Origin: Cladocopium goreaui
Taxonomy: Eukaryota; Sar; Dinophyceae; Suessiales; Symbiodiniaceae
DNA length: 64,000 nucleotides
Reading direction: 5' to 3'
Assembly (NCBI GenBank): GCA_947184155.2
Contig: CAMXCT020000257.1
Location: 1 to 64,000, forward strand
The first letter of the stretch is position 1; every line of letters starts with the position of its first letter. Shown here one piece after another: positions 2,101 to 18,060 of the stretch. The notes below the pieces were generated by a model. The model was given only the letters and a program-made list of their open reading frames with translations. It was not told the origin of the DNA and did no database searches. The translations under genes and the position numbers were made by a program.

Positions 2101-3922
2101 GGTTGGAGAAACACTTCAAAGCGTTCTGACTCTATGAGTTGCCAATTCTTCAAACTCCATGACAGAAGTTCATTCTTAAACAGGGAGGTCACCAAGCACA
2201 GCTTGGAACAGAAATACTACTTACTCAAAATTACTGCGCTTATGTGTTTGGGCAGCATTTTGGAAGGAGCAGTTCAAGTCAGCACGTAGAGTTTTGGAGA
2301 CGCCAACTAGCTCCCATCTCCTCGACTCGCTTGATTCCTTGTGGGTCTTCCTGCAACCAAATGGAACAGCATACAGATGCGATAAAAATGCGCAAGTTTC
2401 AGTTTGCCTGTGAGCGTGCACAACATGCAACATGTCTTTAAAGAGTTTGGCGCGACATGTCTTTTTTTTGTTATTCCTTTTATGTGGTCCTTGTTTGGCG
2501 CTGCACGCAAAGGTCCCACACCATGTTGCTGCGAAGTTTTCTGCGGGGAGAAAGTTCTGCATGGGCACACCTTGGAGGAATGCAAGCACCAAGTTCTTTG
2601 CAACACGCTCTCGATCCAGTACGTTGAAACCTAACTAAGGGCGAGGCAACAAACCTGGAGACAAGCCATGCTATAGCCAAGATCACCCAGCCTGTCAAGG
2701 TTGTTTTCTTGTCAGCAGCTTCAAACAAGCTTGTCGAAGGTATCAACAAATGAACAGCAATACAAAGACATTGACAGACATCCTGCCTCGTTTCCATTGC
2801 TTTACTCTCATTGCAGCATGACAGGGTATCTAGGAATCTCAGGAAGAGTGAACGAGCCGCGCGCGTCAGATTTAATTAAAAAGAAAACGTGCAAGAAATT
2901 GATGTAATTTCAAGTGGTTCAAAACACTTCACGACATTTCAAGACAATTTTCCTTGTTTGGAGTTACACATTGAACAAAAACAATGTCCGACACCAATTC
3001 ACTCACAGCGTCGAAAAAGAGCCAAAATAGCTAAACAATGGAAAGTGCGGCTGCATTGCATATGGCGGACATGTTGCTTTGCACATGTTGTGCTCCAGTG
3101 CCAAATGCAATTTGCCACGCTGTTAATAAAATTGTACTTTGAAACATTTCTTTGAGAAGTCAAATCTGAAAAATCTCACGGGGTCCTGGGAGATCTCCTG
3201 TTGGGGTACACGGCCGAAGGGTCGACACTGCCTGCGGCCTCACCGGTGCCACAGCGTTGAAGTGCGAACATGAAAATCATACGAAACATTCATGAAACAT
3301 ACATACGAACCTGATAAACACATGAAACCTTCATGAAAACATAACACAGGTTTGGCAAACTCAGCACCGACTCACACACCTTTGATTCGATTTGATTCGC
3401 ACTGAAGAGGCCGCGTTTGCTTTCGCGCTTTGTGATCCTTTGTGTCACTGGGACTCAGACTGTGTCAACTGGAGTCGAACTTTAGAGATATGAAGCGGCT
3501 ATGACACAAGGTTGTACCTGGGAGTAAGTACCACCCAGCACCTAATCAGCCGAGAACCTAGCGACCTCAGAGCCAAAAACATGTTACTGATTCTGAGATC
3601 CAAGCGGCACAGGGATTCCCAACCTACAACTGGATGCGTGTGCGAATCTGAGTTTACCTGCCAGTCACTCAGCTGCTAACAACATGAACACTGATCCTAA
3701 AAGAGCGAACTCACATAAAACGATAAAACGATTTCAATATGCTAAGTGTGTGTCATCTTCAACTGAATTCTCTGATCCGAGGCTCCATCCGAAGCCCAAG
3801 TGCCACTTCCCAACGGCATGGCAAGCTTGGCAACGTCCGTCCAGCGAAAGCCTCTGATCGGAAGTGGCGAAACGTTTGGGTCTGAAGAATGGGGTCAAAT
3901 GGGATCTGAAAAGGTTTGATCT
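2101..3922. other. Intergenic, no gene recognised
   Basis: Short overlapping ORFs occur on both strands but show no domain, no coding-like composition and no convincing splice pattern. A run of short direct repeats based on ATGAAAC and CATACATACGAAC lies at about 3269-3345. A degenerate spliced-leader-like string lies at 3020-3035. Otherwise nothing is seen. Confidence 0.5.
3020..3035 (-). other. Possible relic of a dinoflagellate spliced-leader sequence
   Basis: The minus strand reads TTAGCTATTTTGGCTC. This matches AGCCATTTTGGCTC of the dinoflagellate spliced leader at 13 of 14 positions, but it lacks the 5' CCG and the final AAG. It could be a decayed leader left by mRNA retroposition, or chance. 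Confidence 0.2.
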
Positions 3923-4069
3923 TGTATTTTACAAGGTCGGCCAACAATGTTACAATAGCAATGGGGCTAAACCACAAAGAGCCGCTAAGCACTTGACCCT
4001 TTTGAACCAACGCTACAGAGTAGATCGATGACATATATTATACATGGTTTTACTGCAGGAGTTTTTACA
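3923..4069 (-). repeat. 3' LTR of the first copia element
   Basis: Starts TGTATTTTACAAGG and ends GAGTTTTTACA on the plus strand. It aligns with 16078-16221 over its whole length, with identical ends and a diverged, indel-bearing middle (about 3965-4000). Very short for an LTR. Confidence 0.9.
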
Positions 4070-4078
4070 CCCCCCTCG
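4070..4078 (-). other. Polypurine tract
   Basis: The minus strand reads CGAGGGGGG immediately before the 3' LTR, the expected place for the plus-strand primer of reverse transcription. Confidence 0.8.
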
Positions 4079-4290: not shown

Positions 4291-7200
4291 CTACCTGCGG
4301 TTCCAATAGATCCAACGGCCGCCGGCCTCGTCACGGTAATACCAAGCCCCACGCCAGAAACTCCATTCTCGGCGTGCACCATAGTGATCACGATTCCAAC
4401 TCCAAGAGGCATCCGGGCGACCGGAGCTTGCAGCCTTCGATGTGACTCCTGTGCTTGCTGCTTTTGCAGTGGGCGGCGTCTCAGGCTCCAAGAATGGTCG
4501 TGCTCCTGCTTTGGATGTTGGTGGTTCGGGTGCAAGAAATGGTGCATTGTTGGGGTCAACTGGGGCATCAGCGTGCGAGGCATCTGCGCGAGCAGAGCTT
4601 GAGGCGGCAGGGTCATCATGTGTGGTGACGGATGCATCAGCTTCGGCTTTGCGTTTTCGCTCAGTGGTGGGCGCGACCGTGGGGTCGGCCTTATGACCTC
4701 CAGGACCTCCAGCCTTTGCAGCGGCGCTCTGCTTCTCTTTGCGTTCAAGGTTGCCCCGAACCAATGGAAGGTTTTCCTCATACACCTTTTCGAGGAATTC
4801 AAGAGTGCCATCAAAAGGAACTTGGACAGTGCCCTTCCAGGTCAACAGGCCACGGAATGCGCCACGACGACCGATGTAGCTGACATATTCATCCTCTGTA
4901 AAAATGTGGCGGCCGAACATGAATCCCCAGACCTTCTTCCATGTTTTGCGGAACTCAACTGGGAAACCATCAACACCTCGAGGCTGGGACATGAAAATCA
5001 ACTTAGATAAGCAGTTTTCATTTTGGGCATTGGCGGCGACGCCAGCCGAGATCTGAGCTTTGGTCCTTGGGGGATCGGGGAGGTTGCCATATGCGAACAT
5101 GTCGTCGAATATGCAGTCCTGCAGGTCCTTCCCCTCACCGTGGATGCGGTCGCAAAAAGTGACGTCGCTGGCGTATCTGTCTTCCACGTCCTCGTAGCCC
5201 AGCGCTTTTGCACGTCGATGCCTGTCGCGGCAGTCTTTGAGGACTGCTGATTCCACGGATGTGATTCCCCTGGGGCCCAGTTCCCGGCGAAGCAGATTGG
5301 CTTGCTCATCCGTCAAGGCTGTCAGCAAGCTTCCGCTCATTTTCCCAAACATTCCGAACCCGGCGAGACTTTGCATTCGCCGTTCAAGGATGCGGGTCCT
5401 CCTGTTGGGTTTGTCGGCCTCTTTTGTATCGCCACTTTCGTCCACTGGGAGTGGTTCATATCCACATGTGGTGCATGTCACTTGGCCACTGACGTACTCA
5501 ACCTGGCAGAGGGGGCAGGAGCCCATGAAAGGTTCGCAGTACTTGGGTGCAATGTAAACACGGCGCGTCCTTGCGGGCGGCTGGTCAACTTGCATTGGGG
5601 CAGTGGCTGCATCATCATCAGTGGACTTGGCATCGGGTCGCCCCGTGCTGGTGTCATCCATTGGGTCGTCATTTGCATCATCTCGGGCAGTCAGGGTGAC
5701 CGCTTTGGATTTCGGTGCTGAGGCTGATTCCGCGCCTGTCCATGAGCTGGGCTCGAGATTGCTCTCGGCGCGGGTCCAAAGCACCTGTCCTTCTTCTGAG
5801 ATGCTGACCAGAAACTGCGGTGGAATGCGTTCTGAACACAAAATACCATCCATTTCTGTGCGACTAAAGATGACACCAGCTTCAACTGCTTGCCGCATTG
5901 CGATTTTGACTTCGACTGGACATTTTGCTCTTAATCCAGATCGATACCCCTGTGTGCCAATACAGTGTTCTGCCATGTAGATATGAGCACGGCCACTGTT
6001 GACTGTGTCACCGCCGCCTGGGATCAGGCCGTTCTGTGCGATGCTCTTCCAGCTGCTTCTCATCGTGCGATGGAAGACAACCTCAGGGACCTCAGTCATG
6101 GCACACAGGGGCACGCCAGTGAAGGCGGCTTTTCGCTCGGGGGATACTTGGTTTGAGCAATACACCATGGTTGAATTGGCATAAAGACCCCCTGCGGTTT
6201 TCAAGGCAGCTTCGGAGTGACCCTGAATTGCACGGATTTTCACAGGATAATACGGCATGCCTAGGCCATTGTCGACAGGAAAATGGGAGATCTTTGCACA
6301 CAAGAATTGGAACCTACTCTTGCCATGCTTGTCGATCTTCATTGCGGTGCCAAACAGGTTTGCGACAGTGATGAAAACATCTGGGGGCACTTCCTTGCGG
6401 AAGGCTTTGGCAAAATCCTCCAAGTCAATCCAAAGGTCTTTGTCCATTGGCACCTTGGCACAGGATCCATGCCCCCTGCAAACTTTGTTGACACGAGTTG
6501 CAAAATCAGAAAATTTCTTGTCGACACGAGTCTGGCCAGCAATGGTCTCAACGTCGGATGCCGATATCAGCTCCAGCTCATACGCCGTACCTTCAAAGAG
6601 GATACCGGGCACATCGTCCCCGTCTGCATTGGTCACCATTGTATATTGGTATTCAGGCAAATGCTCTTCCATCCAATATGCTTTCACGTGGCCGGATGCA
6701 TGTCCCTCTAAGCGCGCAGTTGCCTGCGGCTGGTACTGGCTGGATGTGGCTCTCTTGTCATCTGCGGGCTCATCCAATGGTGCTGGTGCTGCTTTCGGCC
6801 GCGACTTCAACATGACCTCAGCCGTTTGGACCAGGATTGTTGCTCTGCTGGATGCAGCGGGCTCGCCGTCGCCGGCGGCCTTTGGAGGGTCATCTTTGGG
6901 AGGCTCAGCAAAAGTGCCCGAAGGCATCGTCTTGGTGTCGATGTAGTCCTCAGTGTCAGGTTGTTGAGCTTCGACGTCCTCCTTGGTGAATGACCTGCCC
7001 GTCGGCGTGATGTGTCTTCGGGACTCTCCAAAAAGCAACTTGGTGATGTTTGCACATGTCTCCTGATAGGATCTTGGCAGCTCGTCCAGGACGGCGCTCA
7101 TGTTCCTCCGCAAATCATCCCATGTCTCCTGGCCACACTGAGCAAGCTCCAAACCAATTCGGCCAACCCGCCATCCGCAATCAATTGCGAAAAGGGTAGC

Positions 7201-10200
7201 TGTCCAAAAGGCAGCAAGACGCGTGCGATTTTCTTCAGAGTTGGCGAAATGCCACTGGTCTCTGAATTCCATTGCATCGGCGTACCCCTTTGCTTTCAGC
7301 CACGGATACTTCGGATTGGCAAGCCCTTGCGGGCTGCTGGTTAGAGCTTTAAATCGGGGCTCCAAAACATCAAAGAACTGGTCAAAGATAGGATGGATGC
7401 CGTAATCTGCGCTCCAAGGCGCGGTCGTGAGACCGGCCGACTGCAAATCCAACTCCCGGGCCTTGTTGACAAACCATGTCAAGTGGCGCTCACAATCATC
7501 CAGGATCGTGGGCCAGTGCCCGTTGGGGCCGTCGTACGGCCAATTTGGATTTTGGGCAATCCCATCCTCTCCTACCAATTCATTTCCGAACCAGGACAAA
7601 TGCAGGTTGATGCGTGCATCAGGATAGCGCTCGCGGGCGTCCGCGGCCAATTCAATCCCACGCTTGACCAGCTTCTGCAGAGTCTTGCCCCAAAGCATCT
7701 CATGGATGAACTCAGTCACATACTTAGGCTTGCGCTGCCGGTAATGCTCGGACAGGTCAAACTTCTTAAGTGTTTTCCTACGCCCTGTGATCAATGCACA
7801 TGACGAGTCAGAGACTAAGATCCAGATTACATCATTGACGGGCATCTCTGGCAACATGATCTTTTCAATGTGGGACTCCTTTGGCAAAAAGCAGAAGCTA
7901 AGGTATTCTGCAAGCGGATCCTCTCGACCGTAGAACCTCAGGGCCGAAGCCGGCGTCCATTCAGTCATCAGTCCATCCACGAGGTCCTGAGCAGCCTGAT
8001 TCTCACCTTCATTGCGCATGGCCAATGCAAACAAAATGCGATTGTGAAGGAGCAACCATGCTTCTTTGTTAGCCTCACGTGTGGCTTCGAGCGCAGCCTC
8101 GCGGCTGGCCGGGTGTGCTGTGGCATATCGCGAGTCAGCCATTTTAGCAGGACAGGCACGAATGACAGCGGGTGAAATCCTTTTGGATGTTTGGCCCACC
8201 ACAGCTACCCGGAAACACTCATGGAGCATGTCAGTCAACTTGAAGGTATAGTTCTCAGCAAGTTTAAGAGCTTTGCCCCTACTTTGATCATGCTCATGTT
8301 TGCCATCACATTTGAATGAGTCTAACACTTCGAGTTCTTTGAAGTTTCCTGCAATAGTCCAACTTTTCTTCATTGGTTGACCGTTGTTTCCAAGAACACC
8401 CAACATACAACCATCAAAGTGATGAGTAGTCATGGATCGTTCTATGAGGAATTTTCTAACCATCGGCCATCTCCAATATTTGCAATTCTTGGACAGTTCA
8501 AATGCTATCAAGGTTCGTTCATCACAAACTTCATCCACAAGTTTGACAAAAGACTTGAACAACTTGGTAAACTGTTTTTGTTGCTCTTTGATTCTTTCTT
8601 GACCCTCAACAGTAAGGCCATTCACATTCCCCCATGGGCTACCTCCAACACAAGGCAACGATGCATAAAGTATCAAAGTGCCGTCATTGAAATCATTTCT
8701 GAAATCTTGGACTTGGGAGGCTAGCCGTTGCCGACAGCTGTTAGTGGTACCATCTTCTTTTTCGGTAACCCTAATGCAGTGGCAATCTTCATTGGACTTT
8801 CTTGGGGTACTAAGCTTCGAATCATCAGAGCAGCAAAATTCGATCAACATTCTGGGCTTAAAAGACTTTTGGGAGCCCCCCTGATTCCCGGCAGCGGTTG
8901 CTAGTTTTGGCACCTTAGTGGAGTTCGGCGCCGCGGTGTGGCGGGCTGCTGCTTCTTCCACCTTTGTCGGGCCAATGCCAATGAGATGAATGGCATGCAA
9001 CCAAAGGGCTGGTCGGGTAAAAGGTTTTGTAAGAATGTCTGCAACTTGGAAACTGGTTCCTACGTTGAGAAGATCGAACTGTTTACATTCAAATTGTTGT
9101 TTCAACCATTTGAAGTTGATGTTTTGTGTTTTGTTCATGTGTCTCATGGATGCTGATGAACCGGTGGACATGACTGTGATAGTCGCTTGGTTGTCCTCCA
9201 TAAATTTGACTTGATAAAATTCAGGGAAACTGGCCTTGAGGGAGTTGATGTCCGCTGCACTACAACCTGTATCGACGTTCCCATTACGGATTTCATCAAT
9301 TTCAGGGTCGATCCTAGTGAACACGGCATCTTCTTGGGGCTTCGCGGCATCGCGAGCTGGCTTACCCTGTAGCTTCTTGAAAAGGTTCAACTGCTCAAAC
9401 AGGGCCAGCATTGGAATGCCCTCGGCTCTCATGCTGTGATTTGCGGCAACTACCTCAGCCTCAGTTGAAGATATTGCAACAACCGTTTGTTTCTTACTGA
9501 ATGCATTTAAGGGGTAATACGTGTTGGGGCCTACAAGCACAATGGCACTGCCAGTGGTACTCTTGCTATCATGTTCGCCTGCATGATCTGCGTCGGCAAA
9601 AAGCCAGAGTTGGCATTCATCAAAGGCATCCCCAATGAAACCCTCTAGGAAATGGTGCTTTGTACAATGAATGTATGACACCAATCTATGCAAGGCAACA
9701 TCGCATTCTATGGACCATTTTGTCACTCTTGATGCTAAGCTTTGTGTGGCACGCAACAAATCGAACCTTGCCATTCTGGCGGCAAAGAGTATCTTCATCA
9801 AGATCTTGCTGGCCACTGGCTGGAGTTTGCCAGGCTTTTCATCTTCACTGAGTGTGGGCCGTGCGATGCCAGCATCTGTGAATGGTGTTGGCACCTCTTT
9901 TAAGGACGATGGGCTGACTTTTGCAAGACTACAATAGTTTTCTACACAGGACCCCAGGAAATCACTCATGTCATACCTCACTAAGTTCACGGGCTTGGCC
10001 ATGACGCCAGCTTTTGTCTTCACAGCGTGATCAACCCCCCTGAACTTAGAGGCCTTGGCTTCCTTTTTCGCCTCGCGTTTGTCGCGATGTGGTCCTGGTC
10101 TGGCTTTACTTGCCATTGCAAACTGCTTGAATTTGTCAGGTCCATCTTGTCCGTAACAGAAAACTGTTTTTCCTGTCCAGAATTCATTTGTTTGATTGCT

Positions 10201-13200
10201 AGATGTTTTCCAATCATCTGTATAAACATCATAGCCCCCCTGATTGTTCCCGTCGGTGATGCTAGGACAACTTTTCAATGTCACCTTTTTGTCAAAGAAA
10301 GTTATGCGACTTGAATTTTGACAAGTTACATCTCCCCCCTCATCAACCGGCTGGTACAATCTTTTTCGGGGTTGTATGTGGTGTCTAATCCATGCCATGT
10401 TGGTTTCATCATGCTCCCACCAGTCTTGTGTTCTGTGTTGTGCGGCTGCTGACTTCTTGGCTTCAAAGGCGAATGCGAAAGGGTGTGCCTGCGAAGGCAA
10501 CCGGATGTTTTGAAATTCACGGTGCATACAGCCAAAGTAGCGATCATATGGCTCAGGATCGCCAATGTTCACTGCAGCCTTGACGCTTGCCCATGCCTTT
10601 TCCAGATTGGCGGTAGGGCCAGCCATCTTGAAATCATCTACATACACAACCAAAAGACAGTTGAGCTCTTGATGATGAAAAATTGAATGCCAAATGTCAG
10701 GTAAAATTTGCTTCCAACCCTGTTTCACCACACGGCTATTGAGATGATTTTCCCAAATACCCCCGCTATCAGGATGACCATAAAGGGCAAGTAACATAGG
10801 AACCATGGGTTGCCAGTACTTTTTCTCCCAATCTTTGGGCCATCTGTTGCGTGGAAGTGACAACCATGTGGGCACCCCTGTGAAGAGGGCTTGTATGTAG
10901 GCTTGGATTGCATCTGCCTGCTGTTTGGAGAACCCGGGCTGACTACCGAAAGCATCTAGCAGCTTTGCTGCTTCCATGGATGCTGGGGAAGAGCCTAACT
11001 CGTTGAAGAGTGCGTGATCGGAATTCTCGTCCCTGACATTGTTCCCTTGGAAAACCGTCCTACCCTTGAACTTCCGGCGAGGGTCTGATTCAGGCAATTC
11101 AGAACCCTTCTCATAGCAAGCCTCAAAGATTCGACCTAGGTGCACAGTTTGGCCATTGCGACGAGCCTCAGCTACTATGTCGCGGCATTCACGAACACGC
11201 TTCTCATCCCAAACACCCTTATTACGGAGATTATCCCACTCCTTATCAAGGGCGGCCTTGGCCTTGGGGTTGCTGGCAATCTCATCTTTTGATACAAGCC
11301 TAGCAACTGAAGCGAAAAGCTCGAGTGCGACCTTGAACTCAAGTTCCTTGATCTTCTCTCTGACGAGCTCTCTAATTCGAGGCCGGTGCTCAATTGTGGC
11401 AGGCGCGGCAACTTTTGGCATTGCCGGCACGGAAAACTTTTGGGAAGTGGCTGGAATAATTTCCCAAACATTGCCTACGAGCTTTGCAATTGCAGGAGGG
11501 CATTGAGTTGCCTCAAGCCGGGCCGGTGAAGATTTCTTCTTTTTGCCCTTGCTGCCAGATGACGATGCTGGCTTCTCCTCCTGCTCCTTGGCTGCTTTCT
11601 TTGCTTCTTCCTCGATGATCAACTTCCTATCTTGGGGTCCTAACATCTTCCACAATTCTGAGTCGATCCCCTCCGGACGCTTTGAACCTTTATAGTTACG
11701 TACAATCCGGTGACCATCCCAATGATGTCCATCTGGAATTATTTCACCTTTAGGGGTCAATTTGAGATCTGGAAATACGGGCGCTTCGGGTGCATCAGGC
11801 TCGACATCGCTGTCGGCTGGTAGAGGCGTACCTGGCTCGTATTCATACTCATCTTGTGGCGGATGCAACCTGGACTCAAGAGGCACAGCTTTGGGTGTCT
11901 GCGGAATGACCTGGTCCTCGAGGCGATCGGCTTTGGGTGCTTTCGAGTCAATCAGAGCTTTCAAAGGAAAGATGAAACCCTCGGATGGCAATTCCAACCT
12001 CTTTGTTCTTTGGATTGTCAGTGCACCCCAGTTGACATGATAATCTGCGGCTTCCAACTTGGCAACTAAGTATTCACCCTTCCAATCATGACCTGGTTGG
12101 ATGTAATACCCAAGGAAAATTCCTTCATTTGCTGTTGGGGAGAGCTTACCTGATGTGTTATCCAACCTCTTGGGGTTATTCCAGAATAACACTTTAGCAC
12201 CAAATGGAATGTGCATTGCAGGGAACTCTTCACCAAACCTGAGTTGCCATGGGGATTCACTGCCGTCAAGCTGGGGGCTTGCGTTGATCGCGGTCGCATG
12301 ATGCTGCATGGCCAATGGCCACATCTTCAAAGGAAGTCCTGATTGCAACAAGTTGCTCCGGGCACCTTCCAACATCTGACGAACTTCGCGCTCAGCAAAA
12401 GACTTTGATGAATCTACATATTCAATGGAAGTTTGGTGTCTGTAACCCAAATCCTTGATGGCCCTGATCAATTCTGGGGAATTGTCAGTGTACACAACTT
12501 GAACATCATCCTTTGATCCAATGAAGTGATTCAAACCATCAACACAGCTTTGTGAGTCCTTGGACTGGCTAGGGTAGACATACCGATATTGGGTGTGCAG
12601 ATCTTTCAACACCAATGCGACTTGCTCCCCCCTGAAACCCTCTTCTACGTTTTTCTTGATAATGACATGATCCCCAATGACATGGTCACCGAACACTTCA
12701 GTTTCGATTCTCTTCTGACCACCTTTCTTTCGTGCCTGAGGTGCCATCATCCTTGCTCGTTGGCAGGTTCTGCAAAAGGGGTTCTTGGGGAAATGCGTGT
12801 ATTGATGTTGGGTACTTGCAGCTTCAGCCAATAGATCCTCAGTCTTGCGGCTTCGGATGTACTCCTGCTGAGCGTCATCCTCCACATGCTCATCCAATTG
12901 CTCTTCATCTTGGGCTTCGTCCCGTTTGGCTTTTGAGCTCGACCGTGAGGTCGGCATTGCAAACAACTTTCTAAGGTGCTTATCCTTTTGAAATTGATCT
13001 TTGGGATAAACTTTGCAACTATCATCCAAAACTGGGACATGACCTTCGATCTTGAGCTGGACGACCTTGTCATCTGGACGGACTAGGATTGGTTTGCCAT
13101 TGGCAGGCCATACGAAACTGTAACCCTGATCTACACATCTCGTTCCTACGGAGAGCACAGCTGGGGTATGATCAAGTACATACGGGTGCACGGGATCTGG

Positions 13201-16047
13201 CAATGCGGACAACTTGACATCAGCAACCTCGTTTGCCTCGGTCGAACCATTGGCTGTGACTAAGGAAATCGGATGCTCGGCTGCACGGCAGTTCTTGGCA
13301 CTAACATCCCTCAGCATTCCTTTGGACACAAGATCGGATTCACTACCTGAGTCGACAAGCCAACTAACACCGGCCTTTGGCGCGGCTGTGGCAATTGACG
13401 GGAATCGACCAATGTCTCTAAGGGCTTTGGGACCGCTAATGAACCTGCACTCTTTGCATGTGATGTCACGTGTGTCCTCATTCCAACAACAAAACCCACA
13501 ACTAGGTGCAACATCTGAATCATGAAGTTTCACAGTTTCCTGAAGCTGTCTTGCACGAACCTGAGCCTCATGCTGTTCAACCTTGGATGAAACCGGAACA
13601 TCTTCAGCTGTCTTGTACACCTCAGTGAACTCTCTTGGACGGTGCTTGACTGGGACTTGACGACCAACTGCCTTCACCTCGATCACATGTGGGGCCTTTC
13701 GGAATCTAAGGCGCTTCATGCTGACACTTGACTCATCGGAGCACGAAGTTGCCTTCGGCTGTTTTCGCACGATGCATGCAAACTTCTGGATCAGGCATGG
13801 AGCGGCTGTGGAATCCTTGCTCTTCTTTTTGGGAGCGGGTGAATTGGCCCTTTTGGTGTCTTTGGTGGCGGCAGCAGCTTTGTCATCATGCTTATAAAAG
13901 CATTTGTCACCACGTCTGCACTTTCCCTGGGCATGATAGATACATGGGGTTTTGGCCATTTCTTCCTTGGACATTTTCTTCCCCTTATCATCTTTATTGC
14001 CCCTTGATGGTGAGCGTGTTTTGGTTCTTCTGGGTGATTGAGTTCGAGATTTGTCGTCCTTGACATGCTTAAATGGACATTTCTTCCCCTTATCACAGGT
14101 ACCCTTTTGGAACTTATAGCAAATCTTGTCACCTTTGCCACCTCGTTCCTGCGATCTACCACGACTTGGGGAACCCTTTCGGCCACCACGACCATCGCCT
14201 TTGGCAGGTGCGGCCTTTGTGTCCTTAATCCCAGCCTTGTTCTTCTCCGCGATGCGGTTCTTGTTCTCCCTCAATCGTTCGCGATCGATCAAGTTCTTCA
14301 TGGATTGGTGAAGAAAACTATAAGACTTTTCATGGGATTTCTCATGAGCACGGTCAAACATCTCAATGTCATACTTCAGCAACTGACTTGGTCGGATCTG
14401 CCTCAACAAGATGTCCCTTAACACAGCATCATCGGGGGTGACAGCCATGCCAGCTAGGGTAGCATCCCATTTGTTGATGAATCTTCGGAGATCCTGGACA
14501 GTATCGCCTACTTTGACAACACCCAAAAGATCTTCTACTCTGTAAAGGCTACCTGCTTCTTCTGATGTCTTGAAGTAGTCCTCAAACATGAGCAGAACAT
14601 ACCTTCCCCTGACCTGGATGCCTTTTCGGGATTGCTGCTCCTTGAAATTCAAGATCCTAGTTGCGAGGTCCCCTCCGGCTGAGCGCGTGAGCGCTGCTGA
14701 TAACTTTGTATCCAGCGTGAGGAACTTTCCAGGATCTTGGAGTTTCTTCAACTGCTCTCTGGTGCACTCTTGATCGTACACCTCATTGAGCCAGAGCCAC
14801 GCCTCATCCGGGCGATCTGAACAGCTTTTCACTTCATCCCTGACATGATTCTTCCAAGTCCTATACGACTCCGGAGCGGGCATGTTGTTCAGCTTGATGA
14901 GTTCGGCCTCCTTAGTTTTTGGCTTATCCTTTTCTTCCCTTTGGGTTAAGGCTTTCACCAATTCAATAAGATCTGAGGGACCCATAACTTGCTGTTGCTT
15001 GGTTACGCTCTTGGGGGAGTCATTTGGGGGAGTTTTGATAGCTTCAGTGGGAGTGAAAAACCCTGACTGCGTTGGCAATTGGGGCTGGTCGTTGCCGACC
15101 GCCGGCTTTTGCTTGGGACTGCCACCTTTGAGCAGCTCATCCAACTTGGCCTTTGCTTCTTGCGCCAACACTGCAGGCGTCTTCAACTCATGAATCGGCT
15201 CGTCACTGCCTTTGGCAGCCTGTGCATCGGATGCTTTGGGAGTGGCAATATTGAAGTGAGGCACGCTAGTGGTAGCGGCTGGCTCGGCATTCAGGGCGGA
15301 TGCTCTCGGAACGGAGGCATGCTGCGCTTTGGCAACATGCTTTAACTGCTCCTGAAGGTCATCGATTTGGTCCTGAAGGCTAAGGTTCTGAGCCGCTGCC
15401 TCATTGATCTTGTCGGCCATCTCCTTCTTGTAGTTCTCGAACTCGGTCCTCAAACTGATGAACCTGGCCTGATCAATTGCAGCCTGATCTTCATATTGCT
15501 TCTTTGTGGCAGCTATGGCATTCTTTGCATGTTCAACTGTCTGTGCATAAGAAGCTTCGAATTCACTAGTGATACGTTGCCTTTCCTCTGCAATTTTCTG
15601 ATCATGCTTTGTGTTTGCCTCTGCCTTTACATCCTCTATTCTTTTGTCATTCGATGCCTGAGCCTGATTCAACCTGACCTCCATCTCGTCGCCTCGTTTC
15701 CTCTCCTCGTTGACGGCACTAATGGCCTTACCTTCAATCTCCTGCAGCCTTTGCTCATACTCCTGCTCCTGCATTACGAGTCTACTTGACCATTCGTTTC
15801 GAATTGAGTCAACTACTCCATGCATTATCTGAAGGTGCCTCTGTTCAGCTTCCCTCATGACTTGCAGGGTATTCCCACTAGTAATCTGGGACAGGTTGTT
15901 TTGTATGAAGGTAAAGTACGCAACAACGGGTTGGAACATTGTTTCGTCATCCATCGGCTCGGGGTTGCCCCCGGCCACATTGGGCACAGCGACAGCCGAT
16001 GGACCTGACCCTGGAACGGCGAGAGGATGGTCAATTGGGGTCCCCAT
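4291..16047 (-). CDS. Copia Gag-Pol polyprotein with methyltransferase-like, SGNH-like and Tpt1/KptA domains
   Basis: One uninterrupted ORF of 3,918 residues, with an ATG 31 bp inside the 5' LTR. Order by residue: Gag coiled coil about 20-250; Gag core about 370-600; two CCCH zinc fingers about 639-660 and 699-722 (C-x7-C-x5-C-x3-H); protease DSGS at 899-902; integrase HHCC about 1080-1095; integrase D about 1119, D about 1186 (YTDN), E about 1218 (AERE); RT about 1580-1830 with YVDD at 1802-1805; RNase H with ADADHAG near 2151 and SSTEAE near 2192, ending ADILTKPF near 2336. These assign it to Ty1/copia. The extra part holds a methyltransferase-like stretch about 2400-2570, an SGNH-hydrolase-like stretch about 2735-2890, a Tpt1/KptA domain about 3174-3415, a CxxC...CxxC zinc ribbon about 3510-3530, and a Trp/Arg-rich end at 3890-3918. 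All key catalytic motifs are intact, so it may be or recently have been active. The methyltransferase and SGNH calls are tentative; the others are firm. Confidence 0.95.
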   Translation of the reverse strand: MGTPIDHPLAVPGSGPSAVAVPNVAGGNPEPMDDETMFQPVVAYFTFIQNNLSQITSGNTLQVMREAEQRHLQIMHGVVDSIRNEWSSRLVMQEQEYEQRLQEIEGKAISAVNEERKRGDEMEVRLNQAQASNDKRIEDVKAEANTKHDQKIAEERQRITSEFEASYAQTVEHAKNAIAATKKQYEDQAAIDQARFISLRTEFENYKKEMADKINEAAAQNLSLQDQIDDLQEQLKHVAKAQHASVPRASALNAEPAATTSVPHFNIATPKASDAQAAKGSDEPIHELKTPAVLAQEAKAKLDELLKGGSPKQKPAVGNDQPQLPTQSGFFTPTEAIKTPPNDSPKSVTKQQQVMGPSDLIELVKALTQREEKDKPKTKEAELIKLNNMPAPESYRTWKNHVRDEVKSCSDRPDEAWLWLNEVYDQECTREQLKKLQDPGKFLTLDTKLSAALTRSAGGDLATRILNFKEQQSRKGIQVRGRYVLLMFEDYFKTSEEAGSLYRVEDLLGVVKVGDTVQDLRRFINKWDATLAGMAVTPDDAVLRDILLRQIRPSQLLKYDIEMFDRAHEKSHEKSYSFLHQSMKNLIDRERLRENKNRIAEKNKAGIKDTKAAPAKGDGRGGRKGSPSRGRSQERGGKGDKICYKFQKGTCDKGKKCPFKHVKDDKSRTQSPRRTKTRSPSRGNKDDKGKKMSKEEMAKTPCIYHAQGKCRRGDKCFYKHDDKAAAATKDTKRANSPAPKKKSKDSTAAPCLIQKFACIVRKQPKATSCSDESSVSMKRLRFRKAPHVIEVKAVGRQVPVKHRPREFTEVYKTAEDVPVSSKVEQHEAQVRARQLQETVKLHDSDVAPSCGFCCWNEDTRDITCKECRFISGPKALRDIGRFPSIATAAPKAGVSWLVDSGSESDLVSKGMLRDVSAKNCRAAEHPISLVTANGSTEANEVADVKLSALPDPVHPYVLDHTPAVLSVGTRCVDQGYSFVWPANGKPILVRPDDKVVQLKIEGHVPVLDDSCKVYPKDQFQKDKHLRKLFAMPTSRSSSKAKRDEAQDEEQLDEHVEDDAQQEYIRSRKTEDLLAEAASTQHQYTHFPKNPFCRTCQRARMMAPQARKKGGQKRIETEVFGDHVIGDHVIIKKNVEEGFRGEQVALVLKDLHTQYRYVYPSQSKDSQSCVDGLNHFIGSKDDVQVVYTDNSPELIRAIKDLGYRHQTSIEYVDSSKSFAEREVRQMLEGARSNLLQSGLPLKMWPLAMQHHATAINASPQLDGSESPWQLRFGEEFPAMHIPFGAKVLFWNNPKRLDNTSGKLSPTANEGIFLGYYIQPGHDWKGEYLVAKLEAADYHVNWGALTIQRTKRLELPSEGFIFPLKALIDSKAPKADRLEDQVIPQTPKAVPLESRLHPPQDEYEYEPGTPLPADSDVEPDAPEAPVFPDLKLTPKGEIIPDGHHWDGHRIVRNYKGSKRPEGIDSELWKMLGPQDRKLIIEEEAKKAAKEQEEKPASSSGSKGKKKKSSPARLEATQCPPAIAKLVGNVWEIIPATSQKFSVPAMPKVAAPATIEHRPRIRELVREKIKELEFKVALELFASVARLVSKDEIASNPKAKAALDKEWDNLRNKGVWDEKRVRECRDIVAEARRNGQTVHLGRIFEACYEKGSELPESDPRRKFKGRTVFQGNNVRDENSDHALFNELGSSPASMEAAKLLDAFGSQPGFSKQQADAIQAYIQALFTGVPTWLSLPRNRWPKDWEKKYWQPMVPMLLALYGHPDSGGIWENHLNSRVVKQGWKQILPDIWHSIFHHQELNCLLVVYVDDFKMAGPTANLEKAWASVKAAVNIGDPEPYDRYFGCMHREFQNIRLPSQAHPFAFAFEAKKSAAAQHRTQDWWEHDETNMAWIRHHIQPRKRLYQPVDEGGDVTCQNSSRITFFDKKVTLKSCPSITDGNNQGGYDVYTDDWKTSSNQTNEFWTGKTVFCYGQDGPDKFKQFAMASKARPGPHRDKREAKKEAKASKFRGVDHAVKTKAGVMAKPVNLVRYDMSDFLGSCVENYCSLAKVSPSSLKEVPTPFTDAGIARPTLSEDEKPGKLQPVASKILMKILFAARMARFDLLRATQSLASRVTKWSIECDVALHRLVSYIHCTKHHFLEGFIGDAFDECQLWLFADADHAGEHDSKSTTGSAIVLVGPNTYYPLNAFSKKQTVVAISSTEAEVVAANHSMRAEGIPMLALFEQLNLFKKLQGKPARDAAKPQEDAVFTRIDPEIDEIRNGNVDTGCSAADINSLKASFPEFYQVKFMEDNQATITVMSTGSSASMRHMNKTQNINFKWLKQQFECKQFDLLNVGTSFQVADILTKPFTRPALWLHAIHLIGIGPTKVEEAAARHTAAPNSTKVPKLATAAGNQGGSQKSFKPRMLIEFCCSDDSKLSTPRKSNEDCHCIRVTEKEDGTTNSCRQRLASQVQDFRNDFNDGTLILYASLPCVGGSPWGNVNGLTVEGQERIKEQQKQFTKLFKSFVKLVDEVCDERTLIAFELSKNCKYWRWPMVRKFLIERSMTTHHFDGCMLGVLGNNGQPMKKSWTIAGNFKELEVLDSFKCDGKHEHDQSRGKALKLAENYTFKLTDMLHECFRVAVVGQTSKRISPAVIRACPAKMADSRYATAHPASREAALEATREANKEAWLLLHNRILFALAMRNEGENQAAQDLVDGLMTEWTPASALRFYGREDPLAEYLSFCFLPKESHIEKIMLPEMPVNDVIWILVSDSSCALITGRRKTLKKFDLSEHYRQRKPKYVTEFIHEMLWGKTLQKLVKRGIELAADARERYPDARINLHLSWFGNELVGEDGIAQNPNWPYDGPNGHWPTILDDCERHLTWFVNKARELDLQSAGLTTAPWSADYGIHPIFDQFFDVLEPRFKALTSSPQGLANPKYPWLKAKGYADAMEFRDQWHFANSEENRTRLAAFWTATLFAIDCGWRVGRIGLELAQCGQETWDDLRRNMSAVLDELPRSYQETCANITKLLFGESRRHITPTGRSFTKEDVEAQQPDTEDYIDTKTMPSGTFAEPPKDDPPKAAGDGEPAASSRATILVQTAEVMLKSRPKAAPAPLDEPADDKRATSSQYQPQATARLEGHASGHVKAYWMEEHLPEYQYTMVTNADGDDVPGILFEGTAYELELISASDVETIAGQTRVDKKFSDFATRVNKVCRGHGSCAKVPMDKDLWIDLEDFAKAFRKEVPPDVFITVANLFGTAMKIDKHGKSRFQFLCAKISHFPVDNGLGMPYYPVKIRAIQGHSEAALKTAGGLYANSTMVYCSNQVSPERKAAFTGVPLCAMTEVPEVVFHRTMRSSWKSIAQNGLIPGGGDTVNSGRAHIYMAEHCIGTQGYRSGLRAKCPVEVKIAMRQAVEAGVIFSRTEMDGILCSERIPPQFLVSISEEGQVLWTRAESNLEPSSWTGAESASAPKSKAVTLTARDDANDDPMDDTSTGRPDAKSTDDDAATAPMQVDQPPARTRRVYIAPKYCEPFMGSCPLCQVEYVSGQVTCTTCGYEPLPVDESGDTKEADKPNRRTRILERRMQSLAGFGMFGKMSGSLLTALTDEQANLLRRELGPRGITSVESAVLKDCRDRHRRAKALGYEDVEDRYASDVTFCDRIHGEGKDLQDCIFDDMFAYGNLPDPPRTKAQISAGVAANAQNENCLSKLIFMSQPRGVDGFPVEFRKTWKKVWGFMFGRHIFTEDEYVSYIGRRGAFRGLLTWKGTVQVPFDGTLEFLEKVYEENLPLVRGNLERKEKQSAAAKAGGPGGHKADPTVAPTTERKRKAEADASVTTHDDPAASSSARADASHADAPVDPNNAPFLAPEPPTSKAGARPFLEPETPPTAKAASTGVTSKAASSGRPDASWSWNRDHYGARREWSFWRGAWYYRDEAGGRWIYWNRR

Positions 16048-16059
16048 AGCAAAGTAGTG

Positions 16060-16077
16060 AGACTACGGCTGATAACC
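16060..16077 (-). other. Candidate primer-binding site
   Basis: The minus strand just inside the 5' LTR reads GGTTATCAGCCGTAG. It resembles the usual copia primer site for the initiator Met tRNA (TGGTATCAGAGC), with one extra T and weak agreement after CAG. The position is right; the tRNA identity is a guess. Confidence 0.35.
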
Positions 16078-16221
16078 TGTATTTTACAAGGTCAGCCACC
16101 AATATGTTACAATAACAATGGGGGCAAGTAACCGCTAAGCTGCTGGCACTGTTTTGAACCAACGCTACAGAGTAGATCGATGATATATACACTACATGGT
16201 TTTACTGCAGGAGTTTTTACA
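16078..16221 (-). repeat. 5' LTR of the first copia element
   Basis: Same TG...CA ends as 3923-4069. It carries the conserved block AACCAACGCTACAGAGTAG and the terminal GGTTTTACTGCAGGAG block. At 144 bp, it must contain any promoter for the element; no TATA box is evident on the minus strand. Confidence 0.9.
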
Positions 16222-17341
16222 CTTTCAATGTAAAGTGTAGTCAAAAACTTGTCAATTCGGGAAACCTACAGTATTTCTTTCTACAATTCTGATCCAAAAG
16301 TAAAAAACGTATTGTTTTTTTTGGGTTTTCGCTTGTATTCTCTTCTCTTCCTACCCTTGCTTTTCCTTTTCTTTGTTTGGGTTGGCATCAGTTATCAGCT
16401 GCAGAAACCCATACATAGAATATATGGATGAGCATGGTACATTTGTCAATGATTGCCTGAAATTTGGCAACTTGTGGGGGGTCCCTTTTGTGAACTTCAA
16501 ACTGCATTCTTGTAATGCAAAGTATAGTCAAAAACTTGTCAATTCGGGAAACCTATTTCTATCTACAATTCTGATCCAAAAGTGATTGACGTATTGTGTT
16601 TTTTAAATGGTGTTCGCTTGTATTCTCTTCTCTTCCTACCCTTTCTTTTTTCCCTTTTCTTTGTTTGGGTTGCCATCAGTTATCAGCTGCAGAAACCCAT
16701 ACCAAAAACATACATAGAATATGGATGAAAATGATACATTTGTCAATACAATGATTGCCCAAAATTTGGCAACTTGTGAGGGGTCCCCTTTGTGAACTTC
16801 AAATTGCATTATTGTAATGCAAAGTGTGTCAAAAACGTCTCAATTTGGGAAACCTGTTTCTTTCTACAATTCTGATCCAAAAGTTATTGACGGAGTGTTT
16901 TCTTGAGGGTGTTCGCTTGTATTCTCTTGTGTTCTTACCCTTGCTATTCCTTTTCTTTGTTTGGGTTACCATCAGTTATCAGCTGCAGAAACCCATACAA
17001 GGAATATGGATAAACATGGTACATTTGTCAATGCAATGATTGCCTGAAATTTGGCAACTCGTGGGGGGACCCTTTTGTGAACTTCAAATTGCATTTTTTA
17101 AATGTAAAGTGCAGTCAAAAACTTGTCAATTTGGAAAACCAATTTTCTTTTCACACTTCTGATCCAAAAGTTATTTACGTATTGTTTTTTTGCAGGTATC
17201 CGCTGGCATTCTCTTCTCTTCCTCCCCTTGCTTTTCTTTTTTCTTGGATGTTTGTTTGGGCTGCCATCAGTTTTCAGCTGCAGGAATACATAGCATATGG
17301 ATGAGCATGGTGCATTTGCCAGTACTATGATTGCCTTAAAT
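16222..17341. repeat. Tandem satellite, period about 287-301 bp, four units
   Basis: The landmark TCAAAAAC(T/G)T recurs at 16241, 16528, 16829 and 17115. Each unit has the same order: an AATG-AAAGTG start, GTCAATT-GGGAAACC, TCTGATCCAAAAGT, a C/T-rich tract, CATCAGTT-TCAGCTGCAG, an ATATGGAT-AAC/AGC box, and TTGCC-AAATTTGGCAACT. The array begins exactly at the copia LTR and runs into the assembly gap, so its full size is unknown. Small ORFs in it are by-products of the repeat. Confidence 0.85.
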
Positions 17342-17985
17342 NNNNNNNNNNNNNNNNNNNNNNNNNNNNNNNNNNNNNNNNNNNNNNNNNNNNNNNNNNN
17401 NNNNNNNNNNNNNNNNNNNNNNNNNNNNNNNNNNNNNNNNNNNNNNNNNNNNNNNNNNNNNNNNNNNNNNNNNNNNNNNNNNNNNNNNNNNNNNNNNNNN
17501 NNNNNNNNNNNNNNNNNNNNNNNNNNNNNNNNNNNNNNNNNNNNNNNNNNNNNNNNNNNNNNNNNNNNNNNNNNNNNNNNNNNNNNNNNNNNNNNNNNNN
17601 NNNNNNNNNNNNNNNNNNNNNNNNNNNNNNNNNNNNNNNNNNNNNNNNNNNNNNNNNNNNNNNNNNNNNNNNNNNNNNNNNNNNNNNNNNNNNNNNNNNN
17701 NNNNNNNNNNNNNNNNNNNNNNNNNNNNNNNNNNNNNNNNNNNNNNNNNNNNNNNNNNNNNNNNNNNNNNNNNNNNNNNNNNNNNNNNNNNNNNNNNNNN
17801 NNNNNNNNNNNNNNNNNNNNNNNNNNNNNNNNNNNNNNNNNNNNNNNNNNNNNNNNNNNNNNNNNNNNNNNNNNNNNNNNNNNNNNNNNNNNNNNNNNNN
17901 NNNNNNNNNNNNNNNNNNNNNNNNNNNNNNNNNNNNNNNNNNNNNNNNNNNNNNNNNNNNNNNNNNNNNNNNNNNNNNNNNNNNN
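17342..17985. other. Assembly gap (644 Ns)
   Basis: Run of N between a satellite array and a simple-sequence array. The gap length may be an estimate, since both sides are tandem repeats. Confidence 1.
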
Positions 17986-18060
17986 GTAGTAGGTAGTAGG
18001 TAGTAGGTAGTAGGTAGTAGGTAGTAGGTAGTAGGTAGTAGGTAGTAGGTAGTAGGTAGT

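What the first reader, a model, noticed from the sequence alone, without database searches (positions are those of the whole stretch)
5800..6530. RNA 2'-phosphotransferase (Tpt1/KptA) domain fused into a copia polyprotein
Residues about 3174-3415 of the polyprotein carry the ordered Tpt1/KptA signatures: IRAIQGHS, then FHRTM...GLIPGG (family HGT...GL), GRAHIYMA (family R-x-HVHLS), and GVIFSRTEMDGIL...RIPPQFL (family GxxFYxSxNGVxL...VPxxYL). The enzyme normally removes the 2'-phosphate left by tRNA splicing, using NAD+. The key Arg, His and Arg positions appear kept, so it may be active. In a retroelement it could act on repaired or capped RNA ends, on the primer tRNA, or counter an RNA-damage response; these roles are inference.
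Basis: partly seen in the sequence, partly recalled or inferred. Interest (0 to 1): 0.88.

Follow-up and report, generated by a model that had tools for sequence, protein, structure and literature searches.

The report
RNA-repair enzyme inside algal retrotransposon
A large jumping-gene family in a dinoflagellate alga carries, inside its single polyprotein, a domain related to an enzyme that normally clears phosphates from RNA after tRNA splicing, and selection has kept it, so the element probably uses it on RNA during its own copying.

The parts
5788..6522 (-). Tpt1/KptA-family domain (residues about 3181-3425): N-lobe about 3181-3290, NAD lobe about 3291-3425 (the split is my estimate)
6463..6486 (-). 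KVCRGHGS: equivalent of Arg18-His19; Arg kept, His is Gly
   Evidence: numbering from PMC6333775 and the alignments printed
6214..6243 (-). VKIRAIQGHS: Lys66 and Arg68 equivalents kept
6061..6078 (-). VFHRTM: HGT motif, His101 and Thr103 kept, Gly is Arg
5977..5997 (-). SGRAHIY: Arg121 equivalent kept
5917..5940 (-). SGLRAKCP: Arg139 equivalent kept
4291..16047 (-). Single gag-pol-plus-extension frame from the first ATG (residue 6 of the open frame) to the stop
16078..16221 (-). 5' LTR (TGTA...TACA)
16061..16077 (-). Primer binding site GGTTATCAGCCGTAGTC; the 21-mer of LTR end plus PBS occurs 323 times in the genome (152 forward, 171 reverse), control 0
3923..4069 (-). 3' LTR, 82% identical to the 5' LTR over 152 aligned columns
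4070..4077 (-). Polypurine tract GAGGGGGG
   Evidence: read
13885..14127 (-). Two CCCH zinc fingers (gag), residues 646-667 and 706-726
13327..13362 (-). Protease motif WLVDSGSESDLV
   Evidence: gag-asp_proteas weak match, 0.082, under cut-off,
12385..12807 (-). Integrase: HHCC (12763-12807) and TDN...FAE (12385-12492, about 30 residues between D and E)
   Evidence: motif reading; SH3_retrovirus weak match, 0.074, under cut-off,
10531..11076 (-). Reverse transcriptase RVT_2 match with LVVYVDDF (10630-10653)
   Evidence: 0.0021; 1.9e-4, 21.5 bits, cut-off 31.6
9025..9609 (-). RNase H: FADADHAG ... VADILTK (the ADxxTK signature)
   Evidence: signature in PMC5445492
7246..8841 (-). Extension between RNase H and Tpt1: methyltransferase-like motifs (8632-8841) and SGNH-hydrolase-like motifs (7246-7818); identity not established
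   Evidence: motif reading, likeness recalled; no Pfam match; model not usable, pLDDT 42.7

Best explanation
Shown: a Ty1/copia-type retrotransposon of a dinoflagellate has taken a domain of the Tpt1/KptA NAD+-dependent RNA 2'-phosphotransferase family into the C-terminal extension of its single polyprotein, and selection has kept it there through the radiation of a large family with recent insertions. Inferred: the domain is an active enzyme. It binds NAD+ in the C-lobe, lets an RNA 2'-phosphate attack it, and releases a 2'-OH RNA. Because the His that holds only the 3'-phosphate of an internal splice junction has become Gly in the lineage, its usual substrate is probably not a spliced tRNA but a broken RNA end that carries a 2'-phosphate and no 3'-phosphate. 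Working inside or beside the virus-like particle, it would clean the ends of the element's RNA (or of RNAs it needs) after cleavage by nucleases that leave cyclic phosphates, so that the RNA can be repaired, primed or copied. How likely: functional domain under selection about 0.9, catalytically active about 0.7, RNA-end clean-up as its main role about 0.4.
For: Profile and fold of Tpt1. Active-site residues kept in the 53 copia-type rows of A2, rows with a gap at the column not counted: Arg18 36 of 36, Arg68 49 of 51, His101 50 of 51, Thr103 48 of 51, Arg121 43 of 47, Arg139 42 of 49 (the rows are the window, 7 loci and 45 of the 112 proteins). These six rank at percentiles 78-98 of 310 columns. 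dN/dS of the domain 0.05-0.10 over the six pairs of four close copies and 0.15 for window against L052. 145 of the 150 scored genome matches have no stop inside. Recently mobile: LTR pairs 100% identical in 4 of 8 other copies, exact 5-bp duplications in 6 of 8. His19 to Gly in 36 of 36; [quoted passage not shown] Viral precedent for KptA in RNA-end clean-up, RNA-virus polyproteins included (PMC9503650, passages).
Against: No activity, expression or substrate evidence was obtained. PMC6333775 calls the whole tetrad essential, so loss of His could mean loss of function. The cell has its own Tpt1 with a full tetrad (L001), so the element may not need one. The low dN/dS is not special to this domain: the stretch just upstream gives 0.08-0.10 and gag a median of 0.092. 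Over long times Tpt1 diverges faster than Pol (35 against 66% identity). Lys66 is not well kept (percentile 40), and a few rows have lost single catalytic residues. That a subset of Tpt1 enzymes acts on terminal 2'-phosphates I know only from a title in a reference list and from recall; the paper is not held.
Confidence: 0.45

Rival explanations
1. The domain is an RNA or DNA ADP-ribosyltransferase rather than a phosphate remover: it does step 1 (joins ADP-ribose to a phosphate at a nucleic-acid end) and makes a cap that protects element RNA or cDNA, or blocks a host nuclease or sensor.
For: Tpt1 enzymes put ADP-ribose on 5'-phosphate ends of RNA (stated in PMC9458441, and PMC11088682). The NAD-contact His and Thr are well kept. 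In the second family, element B, Arg68 is Ala in 5 of 5 rows; the matching RslTpt1 mutant R64A slows step 2 210-fold, a step-arrest pattern.
Against: In the copia lineage itself Arg18 and Arg68, needed for step 2, are kept.
Confidence: 0.2
2. It processes the primer: it removes a 2'-phosphate from the tRNA (spliced, or cut into halves) that primes reverse transcription.
For: The PBS is fixed: 323 exact copies of LTR end plus PBS. [quoted passage not shown]
Against: The anticodon-hairpin pattern that a half-tRNA primer would need has 0 matches. The complement of the PBS core not followed by T has 90 matches; in 11 of the 15 loci read it is followed by A, as in the CCA end of a tRNA, and most of the 15 differ in their surroundings. 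No tRNA gene with that 3' end was found. The primer tRNA remains unidentified, so the role is not excluded.
Confidence: 0.1
3. A captured domain kept for RNA binding or as part of the polyprotein's build; catalysis no longer matters.
For: One of four tetrad residues is lost in the lineage; a long extension with no Pfam match lies beside it; neighbouring stretches are equally constrained.
Against: Selection keeps the active-site arginines and the NAD-contact His and Thr, not only the N-lobe.
Confidence: 0.2
4. Not an element domain: a chance match, or a host Tpt1 gene beside a retrotransposon.
For: The whole-protein score is modest (43.1 bits).
Against: One uninterrupted frame; three other polyproteins with the domain; fixed PBS-to-domain distance in 30 of 49 hits; fold match over both lobes; the host's own Tpt1, L001, is a separate and far more canonical gene.
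Confidence: 0.02

Closest known systems
Tpt1/KptA RNA 2'-phosphotransferase (PF01885; structures 7yw2, 7yw3, 6e3a)
   Same: Two-lobe fold; Arg18, Arg68, Arg121, Arg139, His101 and Thr103 equivalents kept
   Different: His19 is Gly; HGT is HRT; long inserts; part of a retrotransposon polyprotein instead of a free cellular enzyme; about 20% identity
KptA domains embedded in RNA-virus polyproteins (Beihai picorna-like virus, Botrylloides leachii nidovirus; PMC9503650)
   Same: KptA inside the polyprotein of an RNA-replicating element
   Different: Those are positive-strand RNA viruses; the paper's main text has 0 occurrences of 'retrotranspos'
DNMT-carrying LINE and DIRS retrotransposons of Symbiodinium (PMC5890265)
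   Same: Dinoflagellate retrotransposons that captured a nucleic-acid enzyme and keep its key residues (the Ka/Ks under 0.2 in the passages I saw is for charophyte Gypsy elements)
   Different: Another enzyme and other element classes; that paper says that the Copia elements lack DNMT
Ty1/copia (Pseudoviridae)
   Same: LTRs, PBS, PPT, single frame, motif order protease-integrase-RT-RNase H, YVDD, ADxxTK
   Different: About 1,577 residues of extension after RNase H, with the Tpt1 domain; D-to-E spacing of the integrase about 30 instead of 35

Membership tests
PF01885 Tpt1/KptA family | Profile match over the curated cut-off | tested here: met
   49.1 and 43.1 bits against 26
PF01885 Tpt1/KptA family | Winged-helix RNA lobe plus ART-type NAD lobe | tested here: met
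Canonical Tpt1 enzyme | Arg-His-Arg-Arg tetrad | tested here: not met
   Arg-Gly-Arg-Arg in the copia lineage, His19 to Gly in 36 of 36 rows that cover it. Filed as a divergent PF01885 subfamily, not as a canonical Tpt1
Canonical Tpt1 enzyme | HGT motif for the NAD+ adenosine 2'-OH (His and Thr side chains) | tested here: met
   His 50 of 51, Thr 48 of 51; the middle Gly is Arg in 44 of 51
Canonical Tpt1 enzyme | NAD+-dependent removal of an RNA 2'-phosphate | not testable with these tools
   needs an assay
Ty1/copia LTR retrotransposon | LTRs with TG...CA ends and target-site duplication | tested here: met
   LTRs at both ends in the window; exact 5-bp duplications in 6 of 8 other copies, none in the window copy (read by eye)
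Ty1/copia LTR retrotransposon | Integrase before reverse transcriptase, RNase H last, ADxxTK | tested here: met
   Motif order; signature from PMC5445492
Ty1/copia LTR retrotransposon | RVT_2 profile over cut-off | tested here: inconclusive
   21.5 bits against a cut-off of 31.6, E 1.9e-4
Ty1/copia LTR retrotransposon | PBS complementary to a host tRNA | tested here: inconclusive
   The PBS position is right; the tRNA was not found

The most novel reading that the evidence does not exclude
At least two unrelated retroelement lineages of the same dinoflagellate took in Tpt1 separately, and each re-tooled it in its own way. The copia lineage lost the residue that reads the 3'-phosphate of a splice junction (an enzyme for 2'-phosphate ends); the other lost the step-2 arginine (an enzyme that stops at phospho-ADP-ribosylated RNA, a cap). 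Both would answer one pressure: host cleavage of element RNA by cyclic-phosphate-forming nucleases. That would be an RNA-repair counter-defence in retrotransposons.
Probability: 0.25. Interest if true: 0.9.

Novelty: new variant of a known kind. Interest (0 to 1): 0.76.

Why it matters
Retrotransposons were known to capture DNA methyltransferases (PMC5890265), and RNA viruses KptA (PMC9503650). A retrotransposon family that keeps a Tpt1 domain under selection suggests that repair or marking of 2'-phosphate RNA ends matters for retrotransposition, and hints at a dinoflagellate defence that cuts RNA. It also gives a natural set of Tpt1 variants with defined active-site losses, which makes the question 'what is Tpt1 for where no 2'-phosphate splicing exists' testable with purified domains.

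Tried and rejected
Half-tRNA primer idea: I first read the PBS as the anticodon arm of a cut tRNA (the likeness to fly copia was recalled). The hairpin pattern has 0 matches in the genome, and in 11 of 15 loci read the PBS core complement is followed by A, as a tRNA 3' end would be, so I dropped it. A normal tRNA 3' end was then sought: 0 matches with the full T stem, 3 with a looser pattern, none a tRNA by ARAGORN. ARAGORN also found no tRNA in the window or in 19 loci.

Host ligase type: of 7 RtcB matches, 4 are on C1, a 7.4 Mb contig that looks bacterial, 2 on C317 and 1 on C4971. The plant/fungal-type ligase profile PF09511 gave 0 matches, but its control rang nowhere, so that says nothing. 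I cannot tell whether this host makes 2'-phosphates in tRNA splicing.

One origin or two for the Tpt1 domains: the tree of 58 rows puts the 27 copia rows and the 5 element-B rows in separate starred clades, but a tree holding them together is not rejected (p-AU 0.072), nor is copia plus host (0.294). Long branches are in play, the host group has no support (39/22), and L044 falls beside copia (90/88). Rows: chosen by me, 22 of the 112 proteins (three short ones, P0045, P0064 and P0089, then dropped) and 21 of the 120 listed. Two captures therefore rest mainly on the unrelatedness of the two polyproteins (no tblastn match of L039 to the window's polyprotein).

dN/dS: the script stopped with an error after the domain table and three pairs of the upstream stretch; the domain table was complete. 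Pairs between the A and B types have saturated dS and give no ratio; the one B-type pair gives 0.22. The gag figure keeps 29 of the 105 pairs, those with pS between 0.1 and 0.6.

Element B class: its RT, RNase H and CCCH finger are my motif reading; Pfam sees only PF01885 in the long frame and nothing in the first. I do not call it DIRS.

Literature: searches. One search was for half-tRNA primers; the others bear on Tpt1, KptA or dinoflagellate retrotransposons. I saw no report of Tpt1/KptA in a retrotransposon. Most hits I saw only as listings; cut lists were 20 of 37; 10 of 11; 12 of 802; 10 of 127. Of the three papers holding both 'KptA' and 'retrotranspos' I saw the KptA passages: a baculovirus gene, an Entamoeba table, a soybean table. 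Of the two I opened one; of the four none. Supplements, preprints and most subscription journals are not covered.

Full report
What is there. The minus-strand frame 4291-16062 is open for 3,923 codons. It is flanked by LTR-like ends at 16078-16221 and 3923-4069, a primer site directly after the 5' LTR (16061-16077) and a purine tract before the 3' LTR. In order it holds two CCCH zinc fingers, a DSG protease motif, an HHCC and D,E integrase motif, a YVDD reverse transcriptase and an RNase H ending in ADILTK. The copia reverse-transcriptase profile RVT_2 is seen at 1.9e-4 but under its cut-off; protease and integrase-SH3 profiles are only hinted at, under theirs. HHCC, DD(35)E, YVDD and ADxxTK are listed as Copia signatures in PMC5445492 (passages); here the D-to-E spacing is about 30. 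That integrase precedes RT in Ty1/copia is recalled. After RNase H come about 1,577 more residues, in which the Tpt1 domain lies.

Active site. Numbering follows C. thermocellum Tpt1 (PMC6333775, passages and section 9; register). Alignment A2 has 60 rows; its 53 copia-type rows are the window, seven loci and 45 of the 112 proteins, most of them short predicted proteins placed by similarity. Not counting rows with a gap at the column: Arg18 36 of 36, Arg68 49 of 51, His101 50 of 51, Thr103 48 of 51, Arg121 43 of 47, Arg139 42 of 49. Position 19 is Gly in 36 of 36, where L001-L003, L043 and L044 have His. Among 43 rows under 90% identity and 310 columns, the six kept sites rank at percentiles 78-98, the median column being 62% conserved; Lys66 does not stand out (percentile 40). 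His19 contacts only the 3'-phosphate of the splice junction; in RslTpt1 its Ala mutant slows step 2 only threefold, while Arg16 and Arg64 mutants slow it 710- and 210-fold. The same paper calls the tetrad essential. The pattern fits an enzyme that has dropped the splice-junction reading but kept the chemistry. This is inference.

It belongs to the element and is under selection. A region search found three other polyproteins of 3,599-3,973 residues with the domain at 78, 62 and 36% identity. They align with the window's polyprotein nearly from end to end at 86, 70 and 48%. A profile of six domains found 112 proteins. In the window's own genome (1.17 Gb, 6,202 contigs) the family search had 1,496 first-look candidates and scored 150; all 150 were over the cut-off and 145 have no stop inside. 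The 150 include three non-element genes (L001-L003); the window's own domain was not among those scored. Of 49 Tpt1 places on contigs up to C1203 (48 plus the window's; one hit on C1, bacterial-looking, left out) compared with the 100 listed of 323 PBS places, 31 have a same-strand PBS within 20 kb upstream. Thirty of those, the window's included, lie at 9.3-10.1 kb and one at 18 kb; none is on the opposite strand. Of the 18 without such a PBS, 11 are element B. Among four close copies dN/dS of the 234-codon domain is 0.05-0.10 over six pairs (dS 0.14-0.43); window against L052 gives 0.15 (dS 1.1), and one B-type pair 0.22. The stretch just upstream gives 0.08-0.10 over three pairs and gag a median of 0.092 over 29 pairs of 15 copies. 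The Tpt1 part is thus held about as tightly as the rest, not more. In the B-type branch Pol is 66% identical to the window (L076, L077) and Tpt1 only 35% (L051). Those are different copies; C241 and C9 share the B type of gag. So over long times Tpt1 diverges faster.

Age. Of eight other copies, four have identical LTRs, two 99.4%, one 97.7% and one 86.6%; six have exact 5-bp duplications, one 4 of 5, one none (duplications read by eye). The window copy has LTRs of 82% identity and no clear duplication, although its frame is intact; exchange between copies is the simplest reading.

A second carrier. Twenty-two hits score 92-101 bits over nearly the whole profile and lie in frames of up to 2,760 residues. 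I read eight of them (L004-L008, L039-L041) and a ninth, partial one of 63.9 bits (L042). The polyprotein has what I read as RT and RNase H motifs and a CCCH-like finger. L039, the one compared, shows no match to the window's polyprotein, and Pfam sees only PF01885. In the five rows aligned Arg68 is Ala, and in three of them HGT is HGS. None of the 11 such hits has the copia PBS. In the tree, copia (27 rows) and element B (5 rows) are separate starred clades, but a common clade is not rejected. Two more frame types, L043 and L044, keep the full tetrad and were not followed.

The host. L001 is a separate Tpt1 with the full tetrad (180 bits, 178). Among its relatives, the named ones are of Durusdinium, Symbiodinium, Effrenium and Polarella, so the genome is most likely from Symbiodiniaceae or close kin. 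L002 and L003 look bacterial to me (L003 lies on a 7.4 Mb contig).

Role. The primer-tRNA role was tested and found no support: no hairpin for a half-tRNA, no tRNA gene with the fitting 3' end. The PBS core also occurs in other surroundings; whether those carry Tpt1 is not known. RNA-end clean-up is chosen because it is the role proposed for viral KptA (PMC9503650, passages) and because the lost residue is the one that only an internal junction needs. No direct evidence distinguishes it from capping.

Novelty. KptA in RNA-virus polyproteins and enzyme capture by dinoflagellate retrotransposons are each in print (PMC9503650, PMC5890265, passages). I saw no report of Tpt1/KptA in a retrotransposon in searches (listings, some cut short) or in the passages. 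Hence a new variant of a known kind.

Noticed in passing
window 8632-8841 (-), residues 2408-2477: EFCCSDDS ... SLPCVGGSPWGN: looks like a methyltransferase-type segment (recalled likeness) in the extension after RNase H; its core is invariant in the four polyproteins aligned; no Pfam match.
   Followed up: partly
window 7246-7818 (-), residues 2749-2939: VSDSS ... GNELVG ... DQWHF: resembles the Ser, Asn and His blocks of SGNH hydrolases (recalled likeness); no Pfam match and a model too poor to use.
   Followed up: partly
L004-L008, L039-L042: A second family of long frames with a C-terminal Tpt1 in which Arg68 is Ala; L039 shows no match to the copia polyprotein; class of element not established.
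   Followed up: partly
L043 (C5927, two hits 15 kb apart) and L044/L045: Two further Tpt1-bearing frame types; L043 and L044 have the full Arg-His-Arg-Arg tetrad. Their contexts were not read.
   Followed up: no
window 3923-4069 and 16078-16221: The window copy has LTRs only 82% identical and no target-site duplication, yet an intact 11.8 kb frame, while four of eight other copies have identical LTRs: likely exchange between copies.
   Followed up: partly
G000 contigs C1 and C5523 (L003, L002): C1, 7.4 Mb, carries bacterial-looking genes and RtcB; C5523 likewise looks bacterial. The assembly probably holds a bacterial companion genome.
   Followed up: no
L053-L067: The complement of the PBS core lies in several otherwise different surroundings (followed by A in 11 of 15), so several retroelement families may share one primer, whose tRNA gene I could not find.
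   Followed up: partly
C258, L029 and L075: A copy with identical LTRs and an exact duplication has its PBS 18 kb from Tpt1 instead of about 9.7, which suggests a nested insertion.
   Followed up: no
window 16222-17246: A tandem array of units of about 283-302 bases abuts the 5' LTR. The low G+C of 16001-18000 (0.26) may partly come from bases that read N there.
   Followed up: no
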